64,000 nt of DNA from Crambe crambe (Eukaryota > Porifera > Demospongiae > Poecilosclerida > Crambeidae), in contig OZ004597.1 in the NCBI GenBank assembly GCA_963924555.1, forward strand, positions 3,428,404 through 3,492,403, given 5' to 3'. The position numbers and the translations under genes are program-made. Every line of letters starts with the position of its first letter. Position 1 is the stretch's first letter. Under the pieces are notes generated by a model. That model ran no database searches and was not told where the DNA came from. It saw nothing but the letters and a program-made list of their open reading frames with translations. This document shows, piece by piece, positions 366-23,300 of the stretch.

Positions 366-440
366 GGTATAAATTGGTCTCTAGTTCTAGTCCCTGTCAT
401 GAGTCTGTCTTGCTAATAACTGCTAGCTGAAACAGATATC

Positions 441-1454
441 ATGAGTCGTTGTCTTGTGAATGTTAGTGACACTAATTTGTCACAGTATGCATGGATGGTT
501 GATAATCCCTTTGAAGAATCAGACTATGACTTTGTTAGCAATGGATATGCTATCTCTGTGATCATGCTTCTCTACCTTATGCTGGGACTACCATTGAATG
601 CTTTCATCATAGTTGTGATAATCAAAAAGCACCTCTACAGGCAGCCAATTGAAATCCTCCTACTGAATCTTGCCATCGCTTATTTTTTGCTCTGTGTACT
701 GATAATGCCATTAATGATTATTCCAGGCTTTACGGGAGAATACATCTTTGGTAGAAATGATCACACTCGCTGTATAATCTGCCAACTGCAAGGAGTACTG
801 TTGATGATCTTTTTCATGACCTCTATTTGCACCATTGCGGTGATGTCTGTTGATAGATTCATATACCTCAAATGTCCTTTGCGGTACAATGTTATTGCAA
901 CTCCAAAGAGAATGATTGTGGCTGTAATCATACTGTGGTTAGTGTGTATCGTATTCACCATTTCTCCTCTTTTTGGATTAAGTATGGTCAGATTTACAAG
1001 AGTATTTGCCACATGCTACTACCAATTTTCACTAGCAGTTCATGCTGTCATATGTTTAATACCTGTGCTGACACTCTTTGTCATGTACATATGGATATTA
1101 TGCATTGCAAGAAAAACCTTAGCAAGACAAAGTAAAAGATTGGATTGTGACAATGCTGATCATGAAGAAGCAAAGAAGAATCTGAGCAAGAAACGGCTTC
1201 GTCTAGTTCAAGTTTTTGGTGCCATTTTCACAGCCCACATAGTGCTGTTACTTTTTCCAGCATTAATAGCAAGTGTTGTAGTAGGAACAGGGAAGAATTC
1301 TTTTGGTGGTTTCATGATATCTTACTTACTTCTTCATTCAGGAATCGTGCTTCATCCCATACTGCAAGTGATTTTCATAGAAGAGATGAGAACTGTCTTT
1401 TTGAAGTATTTCAAAAAAGTTAATGGTGTAGCTATGACATGTTGTAAGAAGTAG
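441..1454 (+). CDS. Rhodopsin-like G-protein-coupled receptor, single exon
   Basis: A 337-residue seven-transmembrane protein in one exon. TM1 holds the LPLNA motif with the conserved Asn. TM2 reads LLNLAIAYFLL, with Tyr where most class A receptors have the sodium-site Asp. TM3 starts with a Cys and ends in DRF (usual DRY). TM4 has the conserved Trp (ILWLV). A second-loop Cys (ATCYY) can pair with the TM3 Cys. TM5 has Pro (LIPVLTLF) and TM6 has Pro (LLFPALI). TM7 has HPILQVIF instead of NPxxY. A basic third loop carries a KKRLRL motif. The extracellular N terminus has potential N-glycosylation sites (NVS, NLS). The first Met gives a full receptor. The ligand cannot be assigned. Intronless lineage-expanded GPCRs are common in non-bilaterian animals. 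A decayed relative lies at 2569-2720. Confidence 0.9.
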   Translation: MSRCLVNVSDTNLSQYAWMVDNPFEESDYDFVSNGYAISVIMLLYLMLGLPLNAFIIVVIIKKHLYRQPIEILLLNLAIAYFLLCVLIMPLMIIPGFTGEYIFGRNDHTRCIICQLQGVLLMIFFMTSICTIAVMSVDRFIYLKCPLRYNVIATPKRMIVAVIILWLVCIVFTISPLFGLSMVRFTRVFATCYYQFSLAVHAVICLIPVLTLFVMYIWILCIARKTLARQSKRLDCDNADHEEAKKNLSKKRLRLVQVFGAIFTAHIVLLLFPALIASVVVGTGKNSFGGFMISYLLLHSGIVLHPILQVIFIEEMRTVFLKYFKKVNGVAMTCCKK

Positions 1455-2568
1455 ATTCTCATCTTATGTAATGACTGTAAGTGTTGTAACAAATATTTGT
1501 AACTGTGGAGTGTATGCAGCTACTATTGTATTGTATTTAACATCGTAGGTTACGAACAGTCCAGAGTGATTTGTGCGCCCTACCTCCCTCCACTCAATCA
1601 AATTTTTGTAGTTGTTTTGAACTTTATTATTCTGGATAACTAAGCTACCATAATTACAAGATCGTATATTATATTATTATAGCCAGTTGCTTGTGGTTAA
1701 GACAACCCGCTCAGGCAGTATACTACTTTCAATCATTAAAGTTTGTGTGTTATATGAAATTTGTGCATGTGACCATGTGTTTCTGATCAGCTCGTGTCAG
1801 TTGGTTACCAGAAAAGCTTCATATTAGTAGCTAGCACAGTTGAGAGAATATGTTTGTGGAAAAGAATTACTGCAATGTCACATACTGTACTTGAGCTGAT
1901 ATGATCATGTGCAGTTCATTTCTGTGACTTTCAAGTTATTGTCAGTATGTATATTCATAATACATCATGTACCTGCAGCGCAGATAATTGACTCTATTTT
2001 CTATGGAGCCTGTAGGCTATAATGATGACAGATCCAGTTACTATCAGTTGAATAATTATAATCTTACAAAATTTCATAGTTTTGGAAGTTTCATGGTTCG
2101 ACACAACTATTTATTAATAAATACTATCAGCAAATGCCTGTCTTTTAATAGGCCTGGGAATCACTACACATGTAATGTAACATTTATTTCTTCCACCTAT
2201 ATATGTCCAGTGGGAGTGGGATAGGAAGACGAGGGGGATAATGGCTGCTGGGACGGGAAAGAACACTGGGGGGAGGGAGGGGGGGGAGGAGGGGATAAGG
2301 GCAGGGGACAATGGCTCACAATAGGGTTCTCAGCTACTTAGATACTGTTATATGCTGTTATACAATAGTTTAGTGCCAGCATTTATTATAGTCGAGAATG
2401 ATGCAATCAGGTGTGCTCTATGAATAAGCAATATAGAGGTGAGCCACCACACTGGCACCACACTCATTAAATCCATAGACAATTTTATTATGGGGTATGG
2501 TGTTAAATAGTGAGGGAGTTATGCTTCTTCTCAACCCATTTGCCAGTATTAATATTAATTTTGGCTTG
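1455..2568. other. Intergenic, no gene seen; holds a duplicated GPCR 3' flank
   Basis: No convincing coding sequence. The block at about 1797-1960 (starting ggttaccagaaaagcttcat) recurs in direct orientation at about 5570-5720 with moderate divergence. A G/A-rich stretch lies at 2211-2310. The short reading frames here lack any recognisable domain. Confidence 0.6.
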
Positions 2569-2722
2569 GGAATAGGTATAGGGTTAGCAACACATTAAGA
2601 ACCTTTGTGGCTGTAAGCATAGTGTTCATTGAATTCACCATTCCTCCACTTTGTGGATTTGGTGAAGTCAGCTTTCTTGTCATATGTTACTATGTTCCTT
2701 CACTAACATATATTTCTCTCTT
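2569..2722 (+). pseudogene. Decayed GPCR fragment (TM4 to start of TM5)
   Basis: Translation of this stretch lines up with the TM4-ECL2 part of the intact receptor. RYRV...FVAVSIVF matches RYNV...IVAVIILW, FTIPPLCGFGEVSF matches FTISPLFGLSMVRF, and ICYY matches ATCYY, including the second-loop Cys. There is no flanking transmembrane sequence, no start codon and no continuous frame across a receptor length, and the similarity stops at the satellite array. It is best read as the remnant of a tandemly duplicated receptor gene. The assignment rests on about 40 aligned codons, so it is likely but not certain. Confidence 0.65.
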
Positions 2723-2765
2723 AGAATGCTTGTAGTGATTTGTATGTATATAGTAATTCAGTAAA

Positions 2766-4800
2766 TTGTTAACTGTAGTACATACTGTTACATTGCACAC
2801 ATGTAGTTTAACTGTAGTACATACTGTTACATTGCACACATGTAGTTTAACTGTAGTACATACTGTTACATTGCATACATGTAGTTTAACTGTAGTACAT
2901 ACTGTTACATTGCACACATGTAGTTTAACTGTAGTACATACTGTTACATTGCACACATGTAGTTTAACTGTAGTACATACTGTTACATTGCACACATGTA
3001 GTTTAACTGTAGTACATACTGTTACATTGCACACATGTAGTTTAACTGTAGTACATACTGTTACATTGCACACATGTAGTTTAACTGTAGTACATACTGT
3101 TACATTGCACACATGTAGTTTAACTGTAGTACATACTGTTACATTGCACACATGTAGTTTAACTGTAGTACATACTGTTACATTGCACACATGTAGTTTA
3201 ACTGTAGTACATACTGTTACATTGCACACATGTAGTTTAACTGTAGTACATACTGTTACATTGCACACATGTAGTTTAACTGTAGTACATACTGTTACAT
3301 TGCACACATGTAGTTTAGCATGTAGTTTAACTGTAGTACATACTGTTACATTGCACACATGTAGTTTAACTGTAGTACATACTGTTACATTGCACACATG
3401 TAGTTTAACTGTAGTACATACTGTTACATTGCATACATGTAGTTTAACTGTAGTACATACTGTTACATTGCACGCATGTAGTTTAACTGTAGTACATACT
3501 GTTACATTGCACACATGTAGTTTAACTGTAGTACATACTGTTACATTGCACACATGTGGTTTAACTGTAGTACATACTGTTACATTGCACACATGTAGTT
3601 TAACTGTAGTACATACTGTTACATTGCACACATGTAGTTTAACTGTAGTACATACTGTTACATTGCATACATGTAGTTTAACTGTAGTACATACTGTTAC
3701 ATTGCACGCATGTAGTTTAACTGTAGTACATACTGTTACATTGCACACATGTAGTTTAACTGTAGTACATACTGTTACATTGCACACATGTAGTTTAACT
3801 GTAGTACATACTGTTACATTGCACACATGTAGTTTAACTGTAGTACATACTGTTACATTGCACACATGTAGTTTAACTGTAGTACATACTGTTACATTGC
3901 ACACATGTAGTTTAACTGTAGTACATACTGTTACATTGCATACATGTAGTTTAACTGTAGTACATACTGTTACATTGCACACATGTAGTTTAACTGTAGT
4001 ACATACTGTTACATTGCACACATGTAGTTTAACTGTAGTACATACTGTTACATTGCACACATGTAGTTTAGCATGTAGTTTAACTGTAGTACATACTGTT
4101 ACATTGCACACATGTAGTTTAACTGTAGTACATACTGTTACATTGCATACATGTAGTTTAACTGTAGTACATACTGTTACATTGCACGCATGTAGTTTAA
4201 CTGTAGTACATACTGTTACATTGCACACATGTAGTTTAACTGTAGTACATACTGTTACATTGCACACATGTGGTTTAACTGTAGTACATACTGTTACATT
4301 GCACACATGTAGTTTAACTGTAGTACATACTGTTACATTGCACACATGTAGTTTAACTGTAGTACATACTGTTACATTGCATACATGTAGTTTAACTGTA
4401 GTACATACTGTTACATTGCACGCATGTAGTTTAACTGTAGTACATACTGTTACATTGCACACATGTAGTTTAACTGTAGTACATACTGTTACATTGCACA
4501 CATGTGGTTTAACTGTAGTACATACTGTTACATTGCACACATGTAGTTTAACTGTAGTACATACTGTTACATTGCACACATGTAGTTTAACTGTAGTACA
4601 TACTGTTACATTGCACACATGTGGTTTAACTGTAGTACATACTGTTACATTGCATACATGTAGTTTAACTGTAGTACATACTGTTACATTGCACACATGT
4701 AGTTTAACTGTAGTACATACTGTTACATTGCACACATGTAGTTTAACTGTAGTACATACTGTTACATTGCACACATGTAGTTTAACTGTAGTTTAACTGT
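2766..4800. repeat. 39-bp tandem satellite array, about 52 copies
   Basis: The monomer reads gtttaactgtagtacatact followed by gttacattgcacacatgta, 39 bp. Because 39 is a multiple of three and no stop arises, both strands show long artificial open frames of almost 700 codons (13-residue repeat). Variants are limited to a few sites (cacaca, cataca or cacgca, and tagt or tggt). Two identical 12-bp interruptions (tagtttagca context) at 3311 and 4064 are 753 bp apart, which equals 19 monomers plus the 12 bp, so a block of about 19 monomers was itself duplicated. A decayed monomer with its flank recurs at 5143-5200. Confidence 0.97.
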
Positions 4801-4813
4801 TACATTACACTGT

Positions 4814-5137
4814 CAGGGTTTCATCTACTGGGGGGTGCAGGGGGGAAGCTTCCCCCCAAAGTAATTCATGAAAAATATTAGTTACAATTAGCAGCCATAC
4901 ATGTTATATCATTAGTTTTAGAGTTTTTCTCTCCTTCCAATACTGAGTACAATCTAAATCTTCTGAATTCAGTTTCTTCACCAAGTCTGTACACATTATT
5001 CTTAGCTGCCATTAACCAATATCCCCCCAAAGTAGTACAGAATAAATTAATAACATGCAGTACCTACAAAAGTGAGCATGGTCAAGGATTCCAAGGAGCT
5101 CTTCCCCCCCAAATAAAAAATCCTATATGAAACCCTG
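4814..5137. mobile_element. MITE with CAGGGTTTCAT termini and 5-bp target duplication
   Basis: The element starts CAGGGTTTCATCTA and ends TATATGAAACCCTG, an inverted terminal repeat, and is flanked on both sides by ACTGT (4809-4813 and 5138-5142), a 5-bp target-site duplication. Poly-G/poly-C blocks (ggggggaagcttcccccc) sit just inside the ends. It is 324 bp with no coding capacity. It is inserted at the right margin of the satellite: satellite-like sequence resumes just after it. Termini and duplication length resemble hAT-like elements with 5-bp duplications; the class is an inference. Confidence 0.85.
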
Positions 5138-5142
5138 ACTGT

Positions 5143-6190
5143 AGTGATTTGCATGTAGTAATAATTGTTAACTGTATGTACATACTGTTACATTGCACTG
5201 TGTAGTGATTAATACAATAAGGGAAAAACATCTTGTTTCCTTACTTTTTTGAGCAGACATCTTTTTTCAATTCACGAAATGTTTTTTTCCCTTACTTGTT
5301 CCTGGTCTTTTTTCCCTCTCTCTTATGGTTTTAGCCAGGCCCGTACACAGGGGGGGGGGGGTATATAGTGGATGGGGATTTAAATATGTCGGCAAAAATT
5401 CAATATGAGCACAGAATCACCATGTCACACATTCATCTAGTATTACATGTTCTTTGAAGAACACTCTATTCTTGCTACTGTCGAAGCAGTTCTATAAAGT
5501 TTCTTCATCTTCTCAATCAGAATGCAAAGCACACGCACACAATGACATGATCTGACGTGCGGTGACACATGGTTACCAGAAAAGCTTCATAGATAGCTAG
5601 CGCAGTTAAGAGAACATGTTCGTGGAAAAAAAGTACTGCAACATCACATATTTGAGCATCTGCAGTTCCACCTTTCAGGTTCTTGTCAATATGTACACAT
5701 AATAATACATGACCAGGCTCTACTTTCTGATATAATCATCTCACTATCATTATGTGTCCAGATTTAATAGTCTTTGGAGTGACTGAGTGAAGATTTAATT
5801 AATGTCATATGCTGCATGGGTAGATTCCAACCACTACTAAAAGTATAGCCATTAATTATTATTATTATATGTACAATTTCCTGTTACCAGATTACCTTGT
5901 CTGTGATGAAAGTTAACTCCCATGAAGTTCTGAACTGCATCTGATTTAGTACAGCCATCCAACACCAGTTGCTTAAGTACCTCACTGCTGCCAAAGCTGA
6001 GAGCTAGAGATCAGAGTTCACAACTCAGTATGTGAATAAGCCACATACATAACACTAGCCATTATGAGTGCACATCATAGTGTGACAATCTGCCAATCCC
6101 AGGAAGAACCTTTAAATAACAAGTCATTCTCAAATGCTTTATTGTCATGATTGACTGTGTTATTAATTTGAGCATATTATAGAGACTACT
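5143..6190. other. Intergenic: satellite remnant, hairpin-element copy, duplicated flank
   Basis: About 5143-5200 is a diverged satellite monomer with its unit-flanking sequence. About 5219-5337 is a collapsed copy of the palindromic element at 40311-40630 (shared blocks ccttacttttttgagcag and cttgttcctggtctttttt). A poly-G run follows at 5350. About 5570-5720 is the second copy of the receptor 3' flank. A possible minus-strand exon (about 6010 down to 5904, ending in a GTAATC donor) is open but has no recognised similarity. It could be a downstream exon of the dynein gene. Confidence 0.5.
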
Positions 6191-6197
6191 AGGAGTT

Positions 6198-7259
6198 TTA
6201 TGGAGAGCCAAGCTGGCCAAAATTAATGTTATACATTACTATTGATTTCTCCCCTGGATTGTTGTGTTTATACCTACCTCTACTCTGTAAAAAGTGCTTG
6301 CTAACAGTTGTTTTTCCACAACCATGGGGTCCAACTAGCAACGTGTGTCTCCTTGCCACCAGTGCCAATTCCAAAAGGACTTCCACACGGATCTGTTTAT
6401 AGTGTAACAATGGTCAGGTCATCAGAGAATAGAGTAGTAAAAGAGTACAAATGAGGTCACAATGGGGTCATAATAGGGTATTCACAGTAGCTAGCTAGTA
6501 ATTTTGCTGAATTGAAAAAAAAAAAAAACTGAGCAAAAACAAATGAGTAGCTATGGATGTCTCACAATGTGGTATTGGAACTCAATGTTTGTATGATACA
6601 ATTGTACACTTTGATTCGTTACTTAAAGGGACATACTCTCTCTCTCTCTCTAATAACAGAATCTGTCTAATCTGACAACTCACAGTTTCTACAGTGTCCA
6701 CAAACACAGAGCCAAACATGTCGACTTGAAGTTCAGGATCCAAAGGAATTCTGAGAGTGGCATAAAAATATTAATATGAGCTTCATCTAATGAGAATATA
6801 TAGCATAAAGGGTTCAAAGGTTCATAACTTCTCACTACTAATTAAAGGAGTCTCCTCACTTCAACGTTCACCTTGGGGGCATTCAATTAAATTATAGGCC
6901 TATTAATAAGGGGTCCAAGGGGCAACTAATAAGGGGTCTATTATAGAAGACCCACTAACAAGGCATGACTATGATGGCTTTTCAAACTTATCTGCTATCA
7001 TACACACTTGGACTGCCACACGTCCCACTCTCCTGACTCATCAACGTAGTAATCAAACACAGAGTATTGTGAATCATCATCAGGAAGACTATTGGTGAGT
7101 GTCTTGAGCAGCTGACTAAACCTCATCTGCTCCTTTTCTCCAACCAGAATCCCACCATAGCTCCAGATGACTCCAAACAGAAGCAGGCGCTCGATATGGA
7201 TCTCACTAAACACTTCAGCAGTCTCATTATAGTTCTGAGTGATTATAGGAGAGATATAA

Positions 7260-7329
<70 letters not shown>

Positions 7330-7360
7330 GTAGGCAGACAGGCAGACAGACAGTCAAACT

Positions 7361-7400
<40 letters not shown>

Positions 7401-8320
7401 TCCCAAAAAGCAACTAAGTTAAACATAGACTTACATTGAGAAGTGTGGAGAGGTAAGCCAAACATGTTTCGATGAGACCAACTTCACTGTACATCTTTGT
7501 TTGCCTAAAAATAACAACATCAGCAGCAACAGATTATGGGTAAATAAAGGGTCTACATAAAGCATGCATACCCTAACTTGTGCATGACAAACTCCACGAC
7601 ACTATCCATGATTTGCTCAAAGTACTTCAGCAAACACTTAGCCTCTCGGGGATTTCTGCCGGCCAGCCATGCCTGCACTACAGGTCTCCAGCCCAACACA
7701 TTGGCATCAAAGTACACAATACCCTGTGTAATGAAACACTCACATAACTATACCTGTATACAATTTTTGTGGTTGGGGGGGGGGGATTTTCGTAAAAGAA
7801 AATTATTATGGTAAACATTTTCTTCCAATAAAAAATTTGCACTTTTTAATTGAGGGTTTATATATTATTTACCGTATTCAGGACACTGCTTGGAGATGCC
7901 TGGTCCAAATCCCCAGTTTCAAAAATCAGTTTCAGGCTGGAGTCATTCATCAAAAGATGTTCTCCATTGCTCAAGGTGAGAGTTCTACCCTTTCCAAGTA
8001 GTTCTGGTATGTACTGTACCCAGGATGTGTCCATTGGGCCATCCATACACAACCACATCACAGATTGGGTGGCCTGGGAAGTTAGAATAATTGCAAGTCA
8101 TCTAGTGCTCAAGAAGCTTGGTGCATATGGTTTAACATCCTAGTCATGGAAGGAGAAGTGTGTATGTGTGTGGGGGACAGGGAGGGGAAGGAGTGGAACT
8201 TGGTGGGGGAAGGGAGGGGTGACAAAGGGAGAAGTGGGTCCTTTCATATTGGTACTTCCAGCAAACATTAGAGCTTGGGAAGAGGAGAAAGGGTTCCTTC
8301 ATAATTATTTGGTAGGGTTC

Positions 8321-8355
<35 letters not shown>

Positions 8356-11300
8356 AGGAGGGAATAAGTAAGAGAAAGAGATACTTAGTGCATAAGAGAA
8401 ATATCACACTATGTAAGACAGAATGATACTATGACATGGCAACACACACCTTGTGTGCTTTCCTGAAAATGCTAGTGAAGATTCCATCTTCCCAGTCACC
8501 AGTGTTCAGATTGACACAACCAAAGACATCAGAGATGTCATCCATTGCTTTAGGGAACAGTCTCATCAATTTGATGGTAGCTGAGTTATCTGGATTTGCA
8601 TTCAGTGCTGAGATGACAGTGTTTAGTGCAGCTGTCTTTCCAGTAGCAGGTCGGCCAGCAATAATTACAGCTGTCATGGTGATATAATCAATGTGATGAA
8701 ACATGAAAAAGAAGAAAAAATTTTCACCACTCCATCTAAACCTTCATAATATGATCCGCACAGTTCCCATCAAACACTAAAACTGTGCCACAACCAGTGA
8801 CTGAGCTGTGATCTTAAAATAACAACAAATAAACAAACCAACAAAAAAAAAAAACAACCGAATCTGCTACCCCCAAAAATAGATCGAAGAGAGTCAACAC
8901 AATAGTAAGTTCAGTAGTCAATTCAGTTTTAATTAAAATCACCAGGGACTGAATTTCCTATGCAGGAGTTTCTTGTACTCACCATGCTTTAGGTGTGTCA
9001 TGGCAAAGAGATGTTCCACCTTGGAGAGCCATGGCTTAGAAGGAACCAGACCAGCCTTGCTTGCTTCTTCCTTGAGCTGCTCTGAGATGTTTTGATGAGA
9101 TGTGATGGTAAGAGATGGGTTTTTGTACACCATGTTGAATCCAGCAGGTGATATTAGATGTTGGATTTGGATATTAGGCATTTCTGGACTCCCTGCAAAT
9201 ACTCTCTTCACTACTGTTGTGAAGAGATTCAGCTCCTATCAAATCAACAGCAATAATAAATGTTATTATAATGATAATAACAGCAGCACCAACAATAATA
9301 ATAACAACAATAGCAACAACAAAAACAAACAAACAATGTAGCTAATGCAACACAATAACAGCAGCAACAATAATGATAATAATAACAGCAGCAGCAACAA
9401 GAATAACAGCAAAGAAAAATTTTGATGGGTTCAGGATAGCTAGCTACCATGTCTATGCTTGTGTGGTTTTCCATGGCCCAGTCACCCCAAACATGAAGGT
9501 AGAAGCATACTTTGTTGTTGTTGTTGTTGTTATTGTTGTTGTTGCTATTGTTATCAATGTACAGTAGTTACCTGGCTTGGAAGTCTAGCTCCAATGATTT
9601 TCAGTACCAGCTGTGCTATGAATGCATGCTCCTTCATGACAGGAGGTGGCAGGGGTTGTCCAGCTGCAGGACTCATAAAAACACTGAGAGTTGAGCCTTT
9701 GCTTCCTTTCCCTTTGGGCTCGTGTGCAGGAGAGGGGCCACTGCTGGTGCTGAGGAGACGGTTCTCATGGAAGAGTGAGGATGAGCGGTGTTCAAGACGG
9801 TTCTTGGCTGTCTGGCTTGCTGTAGCTCCTTTTGACAAGGTTATCAAGTGATTGGCCACTTTTAGGATGTGGCAGATGCTGGGTGTGCTCAAATTGGCTT
9901 GAGGGCAGTTGGTAGAGCTAAAAATGTGGTGGATAAATCTTAATGATCAGCTAATTGTGGAGGAAATTTGTGGCTTTGCAAAAGCTACAAATGTTCCCTT
10001 AAAAATAATCATAGCTGAAATTGAGGTCAGAATTGTTGAATTGTTGTTTGTGGGGATGGTTATCTGTAGTTAACAATCTTACAGCTGCTCTCTGGCCATC
10101 CTTCGCAGTGTGATGAGCTTATTGGCAAGTGCTTTTGGAGCTTTCAACCCCAGAGAAGTGGCATATGCACGTACCACTACAGTGGAGTCAGGCAGGGGGA
10201 AAGAGAAGGTTCGGATGAGGGGAAGAATGGAAGGAGGTGGAGTCCATTGGGGAGAGGATGGGATGGAAGTGTAGGTAAGGAATAAAGCCAGTCCAGGCTG
10301 AAGGGTTACCTACGTACATGCATGTGGATTATAAAATTCCCTCTAGTCCTTCTACAGTGAGTCATGGGTGGGTTAAAGATCAAGGTTCCCCCCCATGCAA
10401 GCACATAATTGTCTTTGCTGCTTAATTAAGCAAGCATGATTCACTGGCTATATACCCCACCTCTGGAAGATGAAGAGTCTAGACTTACTTCAAGTATGTA
10501 TGCTCACTTGTTGCAAATTTCATGCCTTTTTGTGGCAGATAACTCATGTTACGTAACTTAAACTCTTACCTCATTTGTTGATGGAAAAGTGCAGGAGGCC
10601 TTCTTAGACTGCAAGGTAGTGCTAATAATGTGCATCATTTGAGATAACACAGAGAAGGAGGAGGTGGGTAAGTGATCCACGTCAGAGAAGCAAGCCCAGC
10701 TGCCTTCCTGGACAAGGCCTTCAAATACTCTGAGGAGAGGAGCCCCGCTCATGAGGGGTGAACAGTGCAATGTTAGTACATTTCTTCCACTAATCTGACC
10801 TATGCCCTGCGATAATGAAATGATGATAGAACAGAATGTTTTGTATGTAGTTCCTTGCTAGAGAGGGGTTCTGTTCAAACATTAGGTATTTTTACCTTAA
10901 TGAGTCGCACTTTTCCAGAACCTGTTGGTCCAGTTACAAAGCTTGCAAGATGACGAGAATGGGACTGCAAGTAAACATGTAAAGCAAAACCTTCGATAAA
11001 AGACAGTGCACAAATGGAAAGATGACTGAAATGGAGTGAGTGCTTGTTGGCTGAGGCATTTTAAAGTGACACTCCCCCCACGATTCCCTAGTAGACTCAA
11101 GAGAGGATAATCTCTCCATGGTCCAGTGCACATTATAATAATTATGTCTTCTTACCTGTGTGAATGCTATGATATAGTTGTTGGCTCTTGATGTGAAAAC
11201 AGGTATGCTGGCACATCCAAGGTACTCGAAACCATACTCAATCTGGTTGTCCAGACATTGCAGAACAACTGTATTTTCAGGACGAATTTCCTCTTCTTTG

Positions 11301-14300
11301 CTGCTGGGATCATCTCCTTGGTATGTGAGTGTATCTGTACTGTTAAGATCCACTTCTTTGAGATATGGCCGAATAGCTCGTTGCCACTCAAAGTCACCAA
11401 TATCTCTTAATTTATGATGACACAGGTCATCAAGGATGTCCCTCAGCCACAAGGAAAACTGAAAGAGAATAAGTAGTAAAGATAGAACAGCATGTATGCT
11501 TACAAGTAAACACATTATAAGCTCTCTGAAGGAGGATAATCTCTCTATAAAGGACAAAAGGCTGGGTCCCAAATATGTCCATCGTTCAGGAGACCCTTCC
11601 AATATAGTATATGTGCCACCAAACGACCCAATTAGTTTCATAGATGTTTGCATCTTTTCTGCACACAGCAATCTAAGATCCTGTAAAGAGCTATGGATAT
11701 TGCCAGTCATAGATTTCCCAGATGTCTTTTTACTAGCTATACTGTATCACTGCCAGTACTTCTAGACTCACTGAGATACATGATGTCTTGGATATTACTA
11801 TATACTGTACCATTGCAAGTGCTTCTAGATTCATTCGTTTCAGAGGACTCAGCACTTGGTCCACTACTTTCCAGGAGTTCTTCATCAATAGAGTCACCAA
11901 CTTATTCAGTCCCCACATGCTGAACTTTGCTCTTGCTCCAGGCAGGGCTCGGCGATCGTAGCGACACTGAAGCAATGCATGCTCACACTCCTTGCACCAC
12001 TGGAAGAAGAGGGCCATTGTGGTTACCTGTAGGACCTGTGAGTGGGCTACTTCTTCCAGGGGGAGTGATGACCCATCTCCAGCTATGCACACTGGAGAAG
12101 TGATCAGTTGGCGGAGAGTTGAATGGACAGAGGAGAGGATTCTTCCTGCCCAAACTTCAACACCTGAGACCAGAGGAACCTACACAAAGAATGGACGTTA
12201 GTGTGCATATAATAATTTAAGGCATTAAGAGCTGATCTGTTTCATCGTTTGATTGAATGATCTTAATTTGCCAATGACCACTGGCAGGAAGTTAAGATGC
12301 TGGTAGTATATACACAACAATTATGATTAAGACAGGAAATGTGGAGAAGAGCCTGGGGCCATTGGTTGAGTTTTTCCAAAACTCACTGAAGGTATAACAA
12401 GTTGGATGATTGATTAAATATTAACTAGAAATGCTGACTGAAGGTCTGGGTGTGGTTTGATTACAAGCAGAGCAAGACAGAGAAAGCCGTCCTTGCATAT
12501 CTCAGACCATAAGCTGTACAAGGGCAATCTCTACTGAAGACATGAAAGCACTGGAATAGTTTAGGGACGGTGTAGGTATGGCAGTTTCTGGATTGCTGTT
12601 TCTTTCGATGTGCCACAGCTAGCTGGAGCTGTGTGTACAACCTTATGATGTTATCTGTTTGTAACAGATAACTAATGCAACTTACACACATTGACAGTTC
12701 TCAGATAACTAATGGAACAGAAGCATGCAGACACATGGACAATATTATCCATGTGTAGCTGCTTCTGTTCAGTTGCATTAATTATGTTATGAAACAGGAC
12801 ATTCATTCATCCTGCCATCATTTTTAGATTAGATATCCATCATGATGCAAGACATCCAATTTCAGTACCTAAGCAACCTATTATGATCTCTTACAATAAC
12901 TCATGGACAACCCAGACTAGTAGTTAGTTACAAGTCCAGTTTGTCTAGTTCTTCTATCTTCAGCAGGCATCATACTTCATGGAGGTTGAATAAAATTGTG
13001 CGTGATTAGCCATGTATTAATTTTATGACAAGAGTACATGTGACCAAAATGGTTTACCCTTCAGCCTTCAGAATTGTTCATAATTTGGTCAACCTAACCC
13101 TTTTCCTTCAAAGTAGCAGTAATTTTATTGTAGCCATAACAACACACACCATACACATACTTATCACATAGTGTGAAATGGACAATGATTGTGCCATTAA
13201 AGACATGACTAAGTGATTTATAATACTGAAAGCTGTAGGCATAGTGATGCATTCCTTGTACACTGTATGTATAACAGTGTGCTGCCATGCATTGTGATGC
13301 CCTTTTAAGTAAAATAAAAGCCCCTAATTTCAAAATAGGGAAATAAGGGAAAGGCCTACATATATTATTAGAGCCATAATGTACATACATGTCAATAATT
13401 ATAACTCCCACTTGGCAAGTGTAATATCATACAATGTAGCTACTGTGTGCAGTTATATATGATTGTGCAGCAGCTGCAGATAGCCAATTAGCTGAATTGT
13501 ATCGACAAGTAGAGACAGACATTTAAAGATGGGTGCAGCTCTTCGATTTATTTCACGCTCCTTCAGGAGAATCTGCACCTGCCAGCTACTGCAGCAACAA
13601 CATAATGAAGTAGAGCCACCATTACAAACTAGGCCTTCAGAGACAATCTGTGAAGTGGAAAGTACCAGTACTAGACTGGATCTCAGCAAGTGCCAGTTGC
13701 AATGGAACCATGACAATTATGAACCAGTGGGGAAGTGCTCTGTGCTTACAATAAAGGTACTATAACTAGGGAATTATAGCTACTCTGTGCTCTACAATGA
13801 ATGAGCTACCAGAAGAATGCACAGCTTATAATTATAGTGAATCAAATTGATGTAACTGGCATACATGCCCATTCAACATACATGCCCATTCAATTGACAT
13901 GCTTGTTCAGTGCACATGTACATGCCCATTCAATTGACATGCTTGTTCAGTGCACATGTACATGCCCATGCAATTGACATGCTTGTTCAGTGCACATGTA
14001 CATGCCCATGCAATTGACATGCTTGTTCAGTGCATATGTACATGCCCATGCAATTGACATGCATGCCCTTATGTGTGCCTATAATTATGCAAATCGATAG
14101 TCCAGTGGGCAAGTGTATATTGCATGCCCATGTAATTGATATGGCATGTCCATCATGGTATCAGTTACCTTCATACATACACATTCAATAATTAAGTTAT
14201 TATATCATTTCCAAATTTTGCAATTAATGAATTGCAGTCGTGCCTGTGCTAGTGAATCGAGAAGGAATTTGACTAATTATATTACTCATTTCCTCATTTC

Positions 14301-17300
14301 AATGATGTAGTTGATACAAGAAAATGGGAGACCGTATTCCTTCAAGAGTGCTGACACTTTCAGCTGCAACATCACAAATGGCACCAATCCTAACGATACT
14401 GGTCTTCAAATCCAGCATGTAGTTGAGCCCCTTCCACTTGAAGGTCAAACAGAAATACAAGTGACATTTAGGGTCAAGAAAGCTGGGATACACTTAGTGG
14501 ACCTCAGGATCAATGATGGGAAGGTTGGAGGAAGGGTATTCACAAGAACATACACACCAGGTGATGAGTTTGCAATGCTATTTTTTATGACCACATGCAT
14601 GACTACTACAGTGTGATGTCAGTAAATCTTTCACACTAATTTTTACAATCACGAGCAACAACAATAAGAATTAGTGGTCCTTTCCCTAAATGCAGCCCTG
14701 CATTTAAACTTCATTTCATATTATGAGACTAATTTGGGAGTTATCCTTTGATTGGAAAATTTTTTCACTAGTCTGTGCAAGAAATGTGCTGACACCCATG
14801 CTGATTGATAGGTAAAGGGTTCCTAGAAAAGTGCTTGCCCCCTTGGATTTCAGAAATTCTCATGCTCAATGATCTGAAAATACCCAGAAATGATCTCGCA
14901 TGGTAAGAATTTTCTTAGTCAAGGTTCCATGTACGCAGTAATCCATTGGTCACGTGTTCAATCAGCCCTACATATAACTGTATCAATGTATCGTATTTTT
15001 TCTCAACAGGTCCTGTTGATGCTGATAGCACAGAGTTTGAAGGACTCCTGGATCCCTTCATTGTGACTTCAGGTGTATACTCTATGGTAAAGGTTACCTT
15101 TAAGGACTGCTATGGGAACATGGCCAATGTCTCTGGAGATCTCATTCAACTCGATTTAAGAAAGGTATGTGGTTATATGATCTGATCACAGAGTGCATGC
15201 ATGGAACCTTTCACTCTTGGGATCATGCAGTTCTCACCTGTGATTAAGTAAAGCTTTCAGCTTTGGTTTGGGTGGAACCAAGGTTTAGTCTTATGTATAC
15301 AATCAGATAGATGACCTGGGGTTATTTCCATTTATTGGGAGACAAAACCACATTCACCTATACACTTTCATTATGGCTCAGTGCATAATATTATTTTGAA
15401 ATTGTGTATACATATAATGGGAAGTCATAACACTTCTGGTTACAAGCATTACATTGCAGAGGACTGTCTGACTCAGTCATAATACTGCTGATTACAGGCA
15501 TAGTGTGCCATATTTGCAAGTAATCATCCGTAACACTGAGATGCAAACTTAGTTATATAAGCAGTGATGGATCCAGGGGGAGGGGAGAGCAAAGGTTATT
15601 AGCACTGGTTATGTGATGCTTGTGTGCAGAAATTTTTTGAATGACTATGCCCACCTTTGCCTGATCACCACCCACTTGCTGTACATCCAGTATCATAAAT
15701 CTAGCTTAGTCAAGACTAAACAGCTGAAACTTTGCTGAGCACACTATCTACATAGCAAAGTAGGGCAATGCCACACTTTATTCGGGTGGGGGGGAGGCAA
15801 TCGCCCCATTGCCCCCCTCTGGATCTGCCTTTGATAAGTTATCAGAGAGCTCCCAAGTAGAAATGGCCCCTTGGAGTAATAGAAAACATTTTCTTTGGAA
15901 TACATTTCTTATACTGTCAACAACTCCTGACTTGAACACAGTTCAGTATGCTAGGACTCAAGTATGAAGAGCAGGAGACAAAGTAGCATCATTTTACAGC
16001 AATTTCATTTTCATCTGGTCCTTCACTGTCATTATCATCATCATCATCCACAGAGAAATGGTTCATTGAAATGCTATACCACATTACTCAGAAATGACTG
16101 CGCTAGTGCCTTCTATCTTTAACTGAAATTGTACATCATTTTCCAGTCTGCTAACATTCAACCTTCTATGAGGCAGATATTTTTTTTGCAGAGAAACATG
16201 CCACGCCCTCTACGCCTGACTAGCAGCTGGAGCTGACATACTGCAACTACATAGGTTCAACCCTACTAACGTGCGTTGTGCCAGTGAATGGTTCACCAAA
16301 CTACATCTCCACTGTATTTATGGTAGTTATATCATGCCCAGCCTGAAGATTAAATTGTACAACCCGTTCTTTAATTCATGAGGGCACAGTGTAGTGGTTG
16401 GGCATCGACCTAGCTGGCTGGGGCTAGGAACAAGCTGGCATGCAGAATGCCAGCCCAGGCTGTAAGCCAGCTAGGAAGTTCTGTAATTTATGTTTTCATG
16501 CTCTGTAAAGCTTGTAACCAACGATTGAATAGTCTTATTTACAAGTGAGGCTGGTCTCTAGTGGCTCAAGAGTGTTCCAAGTGATTGGCACATGTTACTT
16601 GATGCTCAAAGCCTTGTAAATAAAAAATTTTGGCAAACATTCAGCATGTTACACATTGCACTTGATTTCTGCTATGATATAATAATGTTTCCATAGAATT
16701 GCACAGCAAATGAAAACGCACATTATGAGATTGCGATCTGTAAAGAAGCCATGGTCGACTACTATGAGCTGTTCATCAATGTCCAAGAACAAGGAAACTT
16801 TGTGGGCTGTGTGAACTATGAGGGAAAGAGAGTTGGACCACCCAGTTTTGGACTCATCTCACTCTCAAGTACATATCTACCAGGGTTTAATTCAGAATTT
16901 TACTTTAAGAATATGCTTGTTTTTCCACAACAGAATATGCAGAATATGCAGCTCAATTAAGTGAAAAAAATTAAGGGGGGGGGGCAACTACAAACCAGTA
17001 CATGTATGTGGAATTCTATTACGAAAGCTAGCTAATTCCTAGGGGAGGCAAGCCATCGTTCAGGGGGGGGGGGGCAGAAGCCCCCCCTCACCCCCCTTGA
17101 AATAAACCCTGTCTACAGTACCTACCACTAGTTCTTGACTCTTATCCTGGTATAATCAATATATATACAGTACCTATCCCAAATAGTGAGTGATGCAGAG
17201 ATAGTTGAAGAAAATGTAGAGAAGAAGAGATGTGTTTGTTATAAAGCATGGATGAATAGTGGGAGAAAGAAAAAGGAAGTTTACTGCCATATATCTCCTT

Positions 17301-20300
17301 ATGTACGTGGACATATGCTATGATCATTTCAATAATAATTTTCAAGACTCTATCCTGTACTGTGCAGGGGATCCAGGTACGTAAACACATTCTCAAGTGG
17401 ATGTCCAAGAGACTATATGCTGCAACAATATCTCCTGCTACTAAAGTGAGTCCGCAGTCTCTTAGCAGTAACTAATAATATTTGGCTGTTATGATGGATA
17501 TGCTGTTACTAAAACAGAATATGCAGCTAGTGCAACAAAATTAAGACAATTGTTTAGACCTGTCCTCCTCCTCCTCCTCCCCCTCCCCCCTTCACTTCCC
17601 AAAGGCCTTCAATTCAGCCTCAGAATATTGAGGCTTTTGCGTATTGTTTTTGCACACTCTCAAATGTATGTGAATGGATGCCTGTACAGAGCAGCAAGAA
17701 TTATGTAGCTATAAGGTATGATACTAAATTGATTTTATATGATTGTTTAGATTATCTTCCATCAAGAGTATGATGCGTTTTCACTGGATAATGGTTTCCA
17801 GGAGCCATTTCCTCTCATCTCCCCCCACAGAGATGTTGTAGGTGCTACATTCTTCAAACTGGTGCTGAGAAGCATAGGAGGGTCTCCAACCTTCCAAAGC
17901 AAGCAAAAGCACTTCTATCAGCAGCTCAAGGAGTATCATGGCTTACAAGACAGAGAGGATAGTGTAGTAATTGAAGTGGAGAGAAAGAACTTAATCAAAA
18001 CTGTGAGGAATTCAATAAAAGTTGTGATAATAGCTTTATTCTGCTTGCTCAGTCCAGGAAAGCTCTGAAGGAACTGTCACAGAGAGATTGGTGCAAAAGA
18101 TTCTTTATAAAATTCAAAGGAGAGTCAGGTAAAAACAAAAATAACAACACCTAACACTGAAGATTTCCTTCTCTCTATGATGATACACATGAATCCATAG
18201 TTAGTTAGAACAACAGCCACAGTTCCTGTACCCTGTTAGCTATGTTCATGTATGTTCTTCTTGCTTTCAATAATCTATGAAAGAGCTTCATATTTCACAG
18301 TTCATTTACTAGCAGGTCATATCATCCATTACCTTGATTTTGAAACAATGCTGGAGCTAAATTAATAGTATGACTGTGCATTGACTAGGAATAGACGCTG
18401 GAGGTCCATGTCGCGAATTCTTTGAGCTACTGGCAACTACACTCTTCAGTGAATACTTCACTAAACTACATGAAGATGAGAATCAGCAAGCACCAGTTAG
18501 TAAAACAACTAATAACAGACCTTATAGGTAACACATACACTTTATATTCTGTACATAAGCCATACATGCTGCCTGTCTCTACCTGGTGCATGCCCAATTT
18601 CAAGTTTCTGAAGTTATCCCAATCTCCTATGTCCTTGTAGGTACACCCGAATCACACGAAGACTTCCAAAGAAAGCTTGAAGCTCTTCAAGCTGTGTGGA
18701 AGGATAGTTGGGAAGTGCGTGTTTGAGAGTGCATGGGGTGACCAGCACTTGTTGAACCTCAAGCTCACTTGTTCGTTTTTTGGCCTCCTACTTGGCCTCA
18801 AACCCAATTATAAAGTGAGGTTTGCAAAAACAGAAAAAAAAATTTTCCCCCTCACCACCACCACATAGAGGATACTATTATTGATTGATTTTCCTTCAGT
18901 GCCTACAGCATGATGCACCTGACCTTCACAATACTAAGATTAGGTGCATATTGGAAAATGATGTGAATGGTCACGGTCTCATCTTTGCTATTCCATCCGA
19001 GAATGATCCATCTAAAGTATAACTCTGAAAAAAAATTTTTTTTTCATTAATGTAGCTACTTCTGGTATTGTTAGGTTATTCCATTGACCAAGAAGAGGAA
19101 AAGTACTGATGAAGTCACTGAAGACAATAAGATTGAATATTGCAATGCTTATTCTCGATATTTACTCCAGAAACGAGTCCAAAAACAGACCAAGGCCTTC
19201 TTGAAAGGTACTGTAAATCTATAACACTCTGTATGATATTGTTTACATGTATTTATATCACAGGTCTCAATAAACTTGTCCCACAGAGTTTGTTGATCCA
19301 TTTTACTGCCAGTGAATTGGAGGTATGCTGTCACAGTATATACTACTTCATGTTTGTTGTTACCACTCTCAGCTGGCTGCATATGCTATGTAAAACATCT
19401 CTAGATATAAATTCTTTTCACATCCGACATTTCAGCCTGGTGCTCAGGCCTTCCTCAGGGGATACAATCGCAAAACACACAATTGTGATTGTATCCCCTG
19501 AGTAAGGCCTGAGGACCAGGCCTAATGTGAAAAGAATTTTTTAAGCTAGTATAAAAAATTATTATCTATACATACTTCACATTTGCCTAACTATATCATG
19601 CTTGACAGCTTCTGTTTTGTGGGATGGATCAAATAACGTATGAAGATATGAAGACTCATTCTGTAGAAGAAGGTGCCAGCCACATGCTGGAAAAGACCTC
19701 ATCCTGGTTCTGGGGAGTGGTTCAGAGTTTCACTGAAGAAGAAAGGGCGAAGCTTCTGCAGTTTGTCACTGGCTCTAGTCGTCTTGGACTGGGAGGTTTC
19801 AAGAGTTTGATTCCACGCTTTACCATCACTTCAACTTGTACTAAAGGTGGACTACCTACTGCTCACACCTGGTGGGTAGCTATGCTAGAAAATCGATTTT
19901 CTCTTCTACGTGCAATTTTCTTTCCCTTGATGTAGTCAAAAGAATGTGAATCTCAAATAGTTAGTCTAAAAGCACACACATTGTTAGGTACAGTTCCTGA
20001 TTGGTCAATGTGGCGGTGCCATCTTAATTTTTACATTCATGCAGTTTCAATCAGCTGTTGCTGCCTGACTATGATTCGATGGACCAGCTTCACACAGCAC
20101 TCATGACAGCTCTGAATGAGGGAAGCGAAGGCTTCTATCTTCCTTGATATTATAGCATTAAAGAAAGTGTGTCCACAACTAATCATGATAACTTATTATA
20201 ATTATGTCCAAGCTGGCTCTAAATCATGTGACAGAAAAATTCAACGTGATTTTCCACCCATCCATCATAATATCACATATTTGTTATTATCTCAACAAGA

Positions 20301-23300
20301 GTGTACCTATTCAATTCCAAATGCATGCACACATTGGGTCTGATCATGATCTGTGTAATAAAGGTAGACTCTCATTACTGAGGTAACCTTAGAGGCACCA
20401 GGCTCATATTAGAGAGGTGGTCTGTATTATTTACTATTGAAAGATTATACTTACTGGAATGGCAAGATTCAGCTGTTCCCCTTCTATAGACTCCACTGCA
20501 GTGATGATGGGTGTGTCCTCAACAAGGGAGGTGTCAGCTAGCAAGATGTTGTTCGTGGAACCAAAAAGGGAGAGGAGATGGGGCTGGATGGAGGTGACTG
20601 ATGTGGGGTTGCTCAGAATGCTAAGCAAAGAGTCATCCGAAACATAGAAGAAACGAGGAAAGGCCTACAGGGAAGAGATTCAAGAGAAGCTCATTAGCAA
20701 ACAAACAAAAAACAATAGACAGACAGACAGACACAACAAACAAACAAACAACAGACCTCTCTTTTCGATTGCAGATATGTGCTAAGAGATTTCTTGCATT
20801 CTTCTAGTTCCTGTCTTATTCCACTCAGCATAAGTGAGTGGGCTGTCTCACCCGAACTAAAGCAGCACTGAAAGATGTTCTTGGTTTCGTGTGCTTTCTT
20901 CATCAACTTGATCCAGCGTTTGTGGATGGATGCGAACTTGACTGCTTCCTCAAGGAACTCCTGGGCAGTTCGGGGGGTGTTGAACACGGCCTCCAAATTG
21001 TGCCACAACTTTTGCACAAACAGCCACTATAAATACAGAGAATTCTTTAACAAGTGTATCATCACACACAGATGCATCCTGACATCTGCACTATCTCCCG
21101 TATGTTGAGGGAAACCCTCAATTTGGACCCCTGAAATGGACTCCCCTTAATTAGGACACCTGAAATTGAACCCCCTCAATTTGGACACTGAAATGGAACT
21201 CTTTATTAGGACCCCTGAAATAGAACCTCCTCAATTTGGACACTGAAATGGATGGAACCACTGAAACCACTGAAATGGAGCCCCCTCAATTTGGACCCCT
21301 GAAATAGGATCCTGGAGCTATCATAGTTACAAGTACAGCTAGCCTCATATGTAGGCCCTGCTTTTTCATGGGGCCTGGGTACGAGGCTAGCTACACTCGT
21401 AACTATGATAGTCACATCCCGGGAAAGAAGCGGGGCCTGGGTACGAGGCTACAAATAATAGCTAGCTACTTAATATACCTGTTGAAGTATATCTGAGACA
21501 GATGCAAGCTTGGCAGCCCAGTGTATGGCTTCTTCTCTGAGAGGCTGGATGTGACGAGACACAAGCATGGTCGCTAGTTCTATCTGGGCATGCTCCAGCT
21601 GCTCCAGGAGGGAGTGGGTGTGGTCTTTGTCCAGCAGTGCCGGGCCATGTGACTTGTACTGCTTAAAGTGGAGAGTCTCTTCGGTCCATTTTCCTTCAAT
21701 GGAGAAGAACTTCTCCTCCAGCTGAAGTTCAAGCTGGGCACAGCTAACTATATCTTGGATGGCAGCAACATGGCTATACAATGTAGTAATAACAACACCA
21801 TAACAATTATTATAGTGCAAAAAAAAAAAAAAAGCAACATAGCTAACAATGTCCATCAAAACTTTTCTAATTATAAGGTAAAACAGGGCTATTTCGAACG
21901 GCGGGGCTATTCTGAACGGTCTAATATTTTCAAAACTCCTCGAACTTATGAGCTCTATTTTGAAAGATATATTCTACTATTATAGTAGATTATATCCTCC
22001 AACATTGAGCTCAGAAGTCTAAGTAGTTTCAGAAATATTTGAATAATTCGGAATTACCCGCTGTTCGGAATAGCCTTACTTATCTACACTAAAAAGTACA
22101 CTCATGCAATATTATAATAGTAACTTGGAATATATTCAACTTTGATACACAGCCATGTAGCTTTTTCCTTACCCATAGAAAGTGCAGGCATATTTCAGTA
22201 GTTAATACAATGTTTAGTTCACATAGCTCAAATAATAAGGACAATTCTATTCTTTGTAGCTATCATGGCCATGTGTCATCCAAAATTATCCTCACTGAGT
22301 CAGCTATCAAGCTACTCACAGGAGCAGACCAGCATCCAAAAGATGTGCCATCTTGAAGATACTTCCTTCCAGCTGAAAGGTGCAGTTGGCCACACCCATG
22401 ACTTGGAGCCAGTGTCGGTTGCGTATCTCTCTGGAGTGCAGCTGCTTGAGCAGAGGAAGAATCTCCCTGTACTGCGTGATCTCCGTCCGTAGCTTTCTGG
22501 AAGCATCCCACTCCTGCTGTTCCACCGGGAGACTCTCGTAAGCCAACCAGAAACTCTCCACCTGTATGTGTGTAATAGAAATATACTGCATAACAAGTAA
22601 TCAAATGGAATCACAGTTCAATTATGAGTTCAAAATTCAGTTACATATGTACCTCTTGTTCAGCGGAATCTAAATCAACTTCATTCCAAAGCTCTTGTCG
22701 AAATCTAATGACAAGAAAAGATAGACATTATAGGAGCAGCAGAGTGAGCACAAGAGAGTTAGCTAAGGAATTCTTCTAACTAGCTATAATAATTATGATG
22801 CCAACCAGCCTAAATATAACAGACCCACTTTTTATCAAAGGTGATGAAGTGTTGGTAGTTTTTGTAGAGAGCTCCCAGGTAGGAGAGGTCTCGTTCTGTC
22901 TGATCGAGTTCTGGATAAGGTGTGGGAGGAATGCTCAGAAGCTTCTGCACTGAGTCCAGCAAATCTCTTCTGCACTTCAGGTCTTCACAATGATCAAGAA
23001 ATGTCCCTAAAAGAGAGAGAAAAAAATCATCAATAGAATAATATACCAGACTTAAATTTTATGTAATGATAACTGTTGATGCCTAATCAAACCACCCTGT
23101 ATTGAAGCCATCTTTTTATTAAGACCACTCCACCATGGTTGTAGTAAGCAGGTTTCACCTTATAACTTCATGAAATAGATCAGTAGACATGTCAATTCTT
23201 TCTTGTAGAAAGGTTTGGGAGTTGAAATGATCACAGCTATATATGTATTCCTTGAATGGCAATCTAGCTGACTATCTGCCAACTGACCTAGTCTGGTAAC

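What the first reader, a model, noticed from the sequence alone, without database searches (positions are those of the whole stretch)
9560..11458. Dynein heavy chain with a catalytically dead AAA1 site
Exon 10964-10896 encodes the AAA1 P-loop as GPTGSGKV (family GPAGTGKT), losing the Mg-binding Thr. Exon 10806-10570 has GSWACFSDVDHL where dyneins have GAWACFDEFNR, losing the Walker B Asp-Glu pair. Exon 10297-10083 has LFLTYTSIP where the sensor I FITMNP lies, losing the Asn. Three independent ATPase elements are gone in one module. The surrounding tail, linker, AAA1 fold (LIRTFSFPLPD), AAA2 P-loop (GRPATGKT) and AAA3 P-loop (GPHGCGKT) are conserved, and frames are open. In canonical dyneins AAA1 is the main motor ATPase, so this protein probably cannot walk. 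It may be an anchor, a regulator or a tail-only subunit.
Basis: partly seen in the sequence, partly recalled or inferred. Interest (0 to 1): 0.88.

Follow-up and report, generated by a model that had tools for sequence, protein, structure and literature searches.

The report
Dynein relative with disabled main engine
A sponge-like animal genome carries a complete gene for a giant dynein motor protein whose main fuel-burning site has lost its working parts, and it belongs to a widespread animal dynein family in which that site is eroded to different degrees.

Summary
On the minus strand, open exons (11458-9572) encode a dynein AAA1 module reading GPTGSGKV at Walker A, CFSDVD at Walker B and FLTYTS at sensor I; the AAA2 arginine finger is Asn. 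The gene looks complete, from window 32462 to about 14.9 kb beyond the window's low end, with linker, ring, stalk, microtubule-binding core and C-terminus. It is not DNHD1. In three trees it falls in one family (sponges, Trichoplax, Nematostella, a rotifer, molluscs, echinoderms, hemichordate, tunicates, non-teleost fishes, amphibians) next to the outer-arm gamma chains DNAH5/8. Ephydatia has the same Val, Thr and Asn, and AK at Walker B, so error is very unlikely. Across 36 members chosen for counting, AAA2 keeps its Walker residues in all, AAA3 in nearly all, the AAA4 P-loop is gone in all, and AAA1 is eroded by degrees, worst in the two demosponges. Between the two sponges AAA1 is the least conserved of linker-AAA4; in DNAH5/8 it is the most. 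Best reading: an outer-arm-type heavy chain that cannot make the AAA1-driven power stroke and works as a microtubule-binding strut or brake, possibly gated at AAA3. Function is inferred. Whether Kollmar 2016 already classified the family could not be checked.

The parts
1..32462 (-). Window part of the gene: ATG at 32462 to the AAA3 P-loop exons; it continues beyond window base 1 to a stop at window coordinate -14859 (contig C20:about 3413544).
   Evidence: tblastn of family proteins and exon-chaining model; contig sequence fetched.
20455..32462 (-). Tail and N-terminal linker exons; N-terminus MEERHWWFASKLQETFHFGGYDNPTLLEDF
   Evidence: signature M(D/E)ERHWW shared with Ephydatia, Clavelina and Acipenser and with P0171 after MAT
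11811..12179 (-). Linker exon after an 8-kb intron that holds a plus-strand gene
11156..11458 (-). End of linker and start of AAA1
   Evidence: alignment
10908..10931 (-). AAA1 Walker A, GPTGSGKV (Lys kept, Thr to Val); exon 10964-10896
10669..10704 (-). AAA1 Walker B, GSWACFSDVDHL (DNAH8 GSWGCFDEFNRI); exon 10806-10570
10265..10288 (-). AAA1 sensor I, ALFLTYTS (DNAH8 GLFITMNP); exon 10297-10083
9572..9913 (-). AAA1 small domain; the canonical YDFGLR sensor II Arg is not found (alignment here is weak; exon start approximate)
8450..8675 (-). AAA2 P-loop exon (start approximate), GRPATGKT at 8656-8633
7572..8073 (-). AAA2 Walker B (WLCMDGPM) and, across exons 8073-7873 / 7723-7572, the AAA2 arginine-finger place SSVLNTG (DNAH8 ATVSRVG): Arg replaced by Asn
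6278..6392 (-). AAA3 P-loop exon, GPHGCGKT; AAA3 Walker B (FIDDLHLP) lies outside the window at -1508..-2017

Best explanation
The gene encodes the demosponge member of an ancient animal (probably holozoan) dynein heavy-chain family that is sister to the outer-arm gamma chains DNAH5/8. Shown here: a full-length, conserved predicted protein; AAA1 lacks the Walker A Thr, Walker B Asp/Glu, sensor I Asn and the AAA2 arginine finger; the AAA4 P-loop is lost in all 36 members examined; AAA2 and AAA3 nucleotide sites are kept; stalk and microtubule-binding core are kept, with acidic and Ser-rich inserts. Inferred: AAA1 cannot coordinate Mg or hydrolyse ATP, so ring closure, linker swing and release from the microtubule are not driven through AAA1. 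The protein most likely sits in a ciliary outer-arm-like assembly, its tail pairing like a gamma chain, as a passive or AAA3-gated microtubule-binding strut or brake beside active heavy chains.
For: Motifs and splice sites; family motif table and counts: AAA1 Thr/Ser 33 of 36 family v 21 of 21 canonical, Walker B Glu 12 of 36 v 21 of 21, sensor I Asn 11 of 36 v 21 of 21, AAA2 Arg finger 19 of 36 v 21 of 21, AAA4 P-loop Lys/Arg 0 of 36 v 21 of 21; AAA2 Lys 36 of 36, AAA3 Lys 35 of 36. Motor trees and a tail tree. Regional identity: coral DNAH5/fish DNAH8 AAA1 88%, above every other region; window/Ephydatia AAA1 41%, below linker 54, AAA2 48, AAA3 45, AAA4 51. One place only in the genome for the N-terminal exon. 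Stalk alignment. Best solved-structure matches of the Ephydatia protein are outer-arm gamma-type chains (Chlamydomonas gamma 1012 bits, DNAH5 937), well above DNAH10 (600), DNAH2 (545) and DNAH9 (535). Roles of the AAA1 residues: PMC4879348 (passages).
Against: No expression, protein, localisation or biochemical data. Walker A Lys and the AAA2/AAA3 sites are kept, so some nucleotide-driven movement is possible. In the hemichordate, sea star, sea cucumber, most molluscs and Nematostella AAA1 keeps GKT and a DE pair, so the family as a whole may not be inactive. The stretches around the dead motifs are more alike between the two sponges (52% of 73 columns) than AAA1 as a whole (41%), and measured against DNAH8 the AAA1 of the window gene (26%) is not the most diverged module (AAA3 24%): relaxed constraint is not shown evenly. 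Outer-arm placement rests on phylogeny only, and the trees hold no DNAH2 or DNAH14 row and no certain DNAH10 row. No dN/dS could be run.
Confidence: 0.62

Rival explanations
1. It is the sponge DNHD1 orthologue, the known orphan dynein-like gene.
For: DNHD1 also has broken AAA1 motifs and was the natural lead.
Against: Named DNHD1 proteins match far more weakly (E 2.8e-16, 9.5e-14, 2.6e-10) than the best family member (3.7e-219); trees put DNHD1 elsewhere; holding it with the sponge pair costs 76 log-likelihood units, p-AU 3.7e-07; another locus in this genome is best matched by DNHD1 (L045: 180 bits DNHD1, 148 DNAH1).
Confidence: 0.03
2. A still active motor with a shifted engine: AAA3 (P-loop GPHGCGKT, Walker B IDD) has taken over as the power-giving ATPase.
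For: AAA3 P-loop Lys 35 of 36 and acidic pair 35 and 36 of 36; most family AAA3 P-loops are closer to the G-x-GKT consensus than those of DNAH5/8 (GEQGTAKT).
Against: The AAA3 sensor I stretch PGGGRND is not kept (loosely aligned columns); [quoted passage not shown]
Confidence: 0.17
3. A decaying gene: AAA1 erosion is the first sign of pseudogenisation in sponges.
For: AAA1 is the least conserved of linker-AAA4 between the two sponge proteins; DNHD1 has been said to be possibly becoming a pseudogene (PMC8754002, passage).
Against: One open chain of about 62 exons over 47 kb; 41-54% identity to Ephydatia in linker-AAA4, 52% around the AAA1 motifs; AAA2/AAA3 P-loops untouched; the same Val, Thr and Asn in two sponge genera.
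Confidence: 0.08
4. Assembly, base-call or gene-model error at AAA1.
For: Gene model is computed, not from cDNA.
Against: Matching losses in Ephydatia from another genome; no unsplit alternative motif nearby; 16 of 18 other dynein-like places in this assembly show a normal AAA1 P-loop.
Confidence: 0.02
5. A non-ciliary scaffold: the AAA ring is used as a structural hub away from the axoneme.
For: Sister position does not prove the same location; stalk inserts are unusual.
Against: The tail tree also places it beside gamma-type chains, though few other classes were in it; the organisms found bear motile cilia (recalled knowledge).
Confidence: 0.12

Closest known systems
DNAH5/DNAH8 (outer-arm dynein gamma-type heavy chains)
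   Same: Sister in the motor trees and nearest group in the tail tree among the rows used; same order of tail, linker, ring, stalk, C-terminal region; best PDB match of the Ephydatia relative is the Chlamydomonas gamma chain.
   Different: DNAH5/8 rows keep the full AAA1 set and the AAA4 P-loop; the family erodes AAA1, loses the AAA4 P-loop, has inserts in stalk and microtubule-binding domain, and shows no PF12777 in the precomputed Pfam lists.
DNHD1 (dynein heavy chain domain-containing 1)
   Same: Dynein-like protein with degenerate AAA1 motifs.
   Different: Different branch; AAA4 keeps a GTGR-type P-loop remnant; weak sequence match only.
Family proteins under mixed database labels (e.g. 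Ephydatia EMCRGX_G034572, Xenopus 'dynein gamma chain, flagellar outer arm', Nematostella 'dynein axonemal heavy chain 8')
   Same: Same clade and AAA4 loss.
   Different: Outside the two demosponges and the rotifer, the Walker A Thr/Ser is kept.
Additional dynein classes of restricted distribution reported by Kollmar 2016 (recalled; the paper is not held)
   Same: May include this family.
   Different: Could not be compared.

Membership tests
Dynein heavy chain superfamily | Tail, linker, ring of AAA modules, stalk with microtubule-binding core, C-terminal region | tested here: met
Catalytically competent dynein | Complete AAA1 catalytic set (Walker A GKT, Walker B DE, sensor I N, sensor II R, AAA2 Arg finger) | tested here: not met
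   Walker A Lys kept; Thr, Asp, Glu, Asn and Arg finger replaced; sensor II Arg not found but alignment weak
DNAH5/8 outer-arm gamma heavy chains | Falls inside the DNAH5/8 clade | tested here: not met
   Sister to it; a Micromonas-labelled row lies on the DNAH5/8 side
DNAH5/8 outer-arm gamma heavy chains | Assembles in outer dynein arms with a beta chain | not testable with these tools
   No protein data
DNHD1 | Groups with DNHD1 sequences | tested here: not met
   (p-AU 3.7e-07)
The animal gamma-like family described here | Sponge, placozoan, cnidarian and bilaterian members form one group | tested here: met
   SH-aLRT 100 in both motor trees; in the tail tree the 11 rows plus Sycon group with 99
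The animal gamma-like family described here | N-terminus M(D/E)ERHWW and AAA4 P-loop lost | tested here: met
   (N-terminus compared by eye in five proteins)
Kollmar 2016 additional dynein classes | Assignment to one of those classes | not tested
   Paper not held

The most novel reading that the evidence does not exclude
A dynein heavy-chain family older than animals' common ancestor, sister to DNAH5/8 and lost in amniotes and teleosts, in which the main motor ATPase has been released from constraint and, in demosponges, fully dismantled while AAA2, AAA3, linker and stalk stay conserved: a 'pseudo-motor' outer-arm head that tunes cilia by holding rather than pulling.
Probability: 0.45. Interest if true: 0.8.

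Novelty: new variant of a known kind. Interest (0 to 1): 0.66.

Why it matters
A 2016 review states that AAA1 holds the complete catalytic set in all dynein isoforms (PMC4879348, passage). This family is an exception, with natural variants from near-intact to fully lost AAA1 on one conserved scaffold. That offers a way to test what a dynein ring, linker and stalk do without AAA1 hydrolysis, and whether axonemes use inactive heads as brakes or spacers. It also warns that dynein inventories built on human genes can miss a heavy-chain class found in Xenopus, sturgeon and several invertebrate phyla.

Tried and rejected
DNHD1 identity: rejected. Alternative intact motif nearby: none unsplit. My early guess that window 5063-4881 was AAA3 sensor I was wrong: the exon model goes from 5888 to -1508. 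The guess stands in note 1 and in the pasted query; that query also held one exon in a wrong frame (31548-31375) and a guessed piece (5720-5640), of which only the last 9 residues of the scored region 2009-2960 were part. Stalkless family: suggested by missing PF12777 in the Pfam lists, rejected by the stalk alignment. Sensor II and AAA4 Walker B counts sit in weakly aligned columns and are not relied on. In the cleaned exon model I left out 4 of 66 predicted exons as spurious (30978-30889, 28828-28816, 18073-17947, 15704-15655) and trimmed 5 by hand, three of them AAA1 exons; other exon ends are approximate. dN/dS, cDNA and structure prediction were not run: no related DNA was at hand, and the structure tool names no spliced sequence among what it takes. 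Literature: nine answered text searches, whose listings were capped, showed no title about this family. Of five papers I saw: PMC12338079 abstract and passages; passages only of PMC8754002, PMC9671500, PMC2239267 and PMC4879348.
Full report
The observation. Exons 11458-11156, 10964-10896, 10806-10570 and 10297-10083 on the minus strand have AG/GT borders and open frames. Their product matches the Pfam dynein AAA1 model with E 2e-28 and aligns along DNAH5 in the PDB set (E 1.4e-25). The three motifs read GPTGSGKV, GSWACFSDVDHL and ALFLTYTS, where DNAH8 reads GPAGTGKT, GSWGCFDEFNRI and GLFITMNP. Six-frame patterns for intact versions found nothing in 10000-11500; a motif split by an intron would be missed.

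The gene. The window is contig C20:3428404-3492403 of a 143-Mb, 119-contig assembly. The closest protein found is from the sponge Ephydatia muelleri; that the genome is a demosponge is my inference. Family proteins align to exons from window 32462 down to about -14.9 kb, and an exon-chaining script ends there with a stop after CTLRPF. It gave 66 exons; I judged 4 spurious and trimmed 5, leaving 62 pieces and about 5.5 thousand residues, with approximate borders. A search with the N-terminal exon finds only this place in the genome. Two plus-strand genes lie inside introns: a rhodopsin-type GPCR and a gene with a weak HECT match below the Pfam cut-off.

Control in the same genome. I looked at 38 loci of DHC_N2 and AAA_6 matches and four further stretches. 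By position these cover 18 other dynein-like places. Sixteen show an intact AAA1 P-loop (15 GKT, one GKS), and 15 of these also showed CFDEFNR in the fetched stretch. Two loci (L007, L027) showed no motif but belong to places covered by other loci. Two places remain: C20:1.61 Mb (L045), with no P-loop match and best matched by DNHD1, and C14:1.18 Mb (L044), whose only P-loop match looks like AAA2; both are divergent dynein-like genes. Three places (L013, L015, L016) are best matched by DNAH5, so the window gene does not replace the normal gamma chain.

The family. I searched with the sponge motor part (121 hits, 120 listed, mostly canonical dyneins), the sturgeon tail (51 hits; 50 show no PF12777, one list being cut, and the other, P0168, is a canonical DNAH5) and the Ephydatia tail (10 hits, 5 of them family members). 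Members come from sponges (Ephydatia; a protein with 'scpid' label, taken from recall as Sycon), Trichoplax, Nematostella, the rotifer Adineta, molluscs, echinoderms, a hemichordate, tunicates, reedfish, sturgeon, gar, bowfin, coelacanth and amphibians. No amniote, teleost or shark member was listed. That suggests loss there, but searches scored only the candidates sharing most words, so it is not proof.

Phylogeny. A quick motor tree of 41 rows and 1608 columns joins the 17 family rows and the Sycon protein with SH-aLRT 100, then an ichthyosporean-type protein (P0170, label Nk52, taken from recall as Chromosphaera), and makes the whole sister to the DNAH5/8 side (100). A mixture-model tree of 21 rows agrees (100, 99, 100), and forcing the sponge pair with DNHD1 is rejected at p-AU 3.7e-07. 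A tree of the tail alone keeps the family plus Sycon together (99) near DNAH5/8, with the ichthyosporean row unresolved. Limits: long branches (DNHD1, Sycon), and no DNAH2 or DNAH14 row and no certain DNAH10 row. Against solved structures the Ephydatia protein scores highest with gamma-type chains (1012 and 937 bits) and lower with DNAH10 (600), DNAH2 (545) and DNAH9 (535).

What is lost. Counts used 36 family rows (the window gene, P0001, P0002, 31 of the 51 proteins, P0169, P0171) and 21 canonical rows picked. The other 20, mostly frogs, were left out before counting, one of them (P0168) being a canonical row; three DNHD1 rows, P0170 and P0110 (whose AAA1 is intact) were left out of the canonical count. 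Family v canonical: Walker A Lys 36/36 v 21/21; Thr/Ser 33/36 v 21/21 (window and Ephydatia Val, Adineta Met); Walker B Asp 29/36 v 21/21; Walker B Glu 12/36 v 21/21 (two family rows have gaps at Walker B); sensor I Asn 11/36 v 21/21; AAA2 arginine finger 19/36 v 21/21; sensor II Arg 1/36 v 21/21 (weak alignment); AAA2 P-loop Lys and Walker B Asp 36/36 each; AAA3 P-loop Lys 35/36; AAA3 acidic pair 35/36 and 36/36 (19/21 each in canonical rows); AAA4 P-loop Lys/Arg 0/36 v 21/21. On a tree built without the AAA1 columns these need at least 2 (Thr/Ser), 3 (Asp), 3 (Glu), 4 (Asn) and 3 (finger) changes, and one for AAA4. Erosion is graded: hemichordate, sea star and oyster keep GKT and DE; the tunicates and the vertebrates with an aligned Walker B have DD; the two demosponges have lost Thr, Asp/Glu, Asn and the finger.

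Constraint. In coral DNAH5 v fish DNAH8, AAA1 is the best conserved region (88%; linker 66, AAA2 71, AAA3 74, AAA4 75). In the window gene v Ephydatia, AAA1 is the worst of the five (41%; linker 54, AAA2 48, AAA3 45, AAA4 51), and v Nematostella 26% against 43, 39, 34 and 42. Other family pairs go the same way among these five: hemichordate/Xenopus 37 v 48-50, oyster/abalone 62 v 67-81, sturgeon/Xenopus 49 v 53-62. Results that cut the other way: the stretches right around the AAA1 motifs are 52% alike between the two sponges, and measured against DNAH8 the family's most diverged module is AAA3 (window 24%, hemichordate 29%), not AAA1 (26%, 34%). So AAA1 has lost its special status, but it is still constrained. 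The stalk keeps the microtubule-binding core with acidic inserts in the coils and a Ser-rich insert in the binding domain.

Mechanism. In studied dyneins the Walker A Thr and Walker B Asp hold Mg, the Walker B Glu and sensor I Asn set up the attacking water, and the AAA2 arginine finger stabilises the transition state; AAA1 alone is strictly required for motility (PMC4879348, passages). With these gone, hydrolysis at AAA1 is very unlikely in the sponge protein. ATP binding without Mg ligands is doubtful but not excluded, since the Lys stays. I therefore propose a gamma-type outer-arm chain acting as a static or AAA3-gated strut or brake. The axonemal place and partners are inferred from phylogeny only.

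Novelty. The JCB nomenclature paper counts 15 human heavy chains plus the orphan DNHD1 (PMC8754002, passages). No mammal turned up among the family members found. Wickstead and Gull 2007 placed the sequences they used into nine families and set a threshold against extremely divergent ones (PMC2239267, passages). Kollmar 2016 reported additional classes (recalled) and could not be read, so a prior class label is possible. The capped listings of my searches showed no paper on a dead-AAA1 dynein of this kind.

Noticed in passing
window 420-1454 (+): Rhodopsin-family GPCR in one open frame (7tm_1 E 4.4e-26) lying inside a large intron of the dynein gene between exons 6003-5888 and -1508.
   Followed up: partly
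window 2769-4810: 39-bp minisatellite with about 52 copies, open in both strands (700 and 679 aa frames), inside the same intron.
   Followed up: no
window 14311-19935 (+): Plus-strand gene with a weak HECT match (E 6e-4, below the Pfam cut-off) nested in the 8-kb linker intron; AREL1-like by eye only.
   Followed up: partly
L045 (G000:C20:1606001-1616000): Possible DNHD1 orthologue on the same contig; of ten queries DNHD1 gives the best tblastn total (180 bits, DNAH1 148), and no AAA1 P-loop match was found.
   Followed up: partly
L044 (G000:C14:1180001-1190000): Very divergent dynein-like locus with an AAA2-like GPSNCGKTAA P-loop and FILDG stretch, below the AAA_6 cut-off; class unknown.
   Followed up: no
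P0170: Ichthyosporean-type protein, sister to the animal family in the motor trees, already has CFDAIQ at AAA1 Walker B but keeps Asn at sensor I, sensor II Arg and an AAA4 P-loop remnant: erosion may predate animals.
   Followed up: partly
window 32764-33237 (+) and 34163-34861 (-): SIMPL/DUF541 protein (E 2e-10) next to the dynein start, and a small GTPase of the Ras family (E 2.3e-53).
   Followed up: no
window 44677-48123 (-): 1148-aa open frame, Arg/Ser-rich in parts, no Pfam match, with an internal 87-bp tandem repeat.
   Followed up: no
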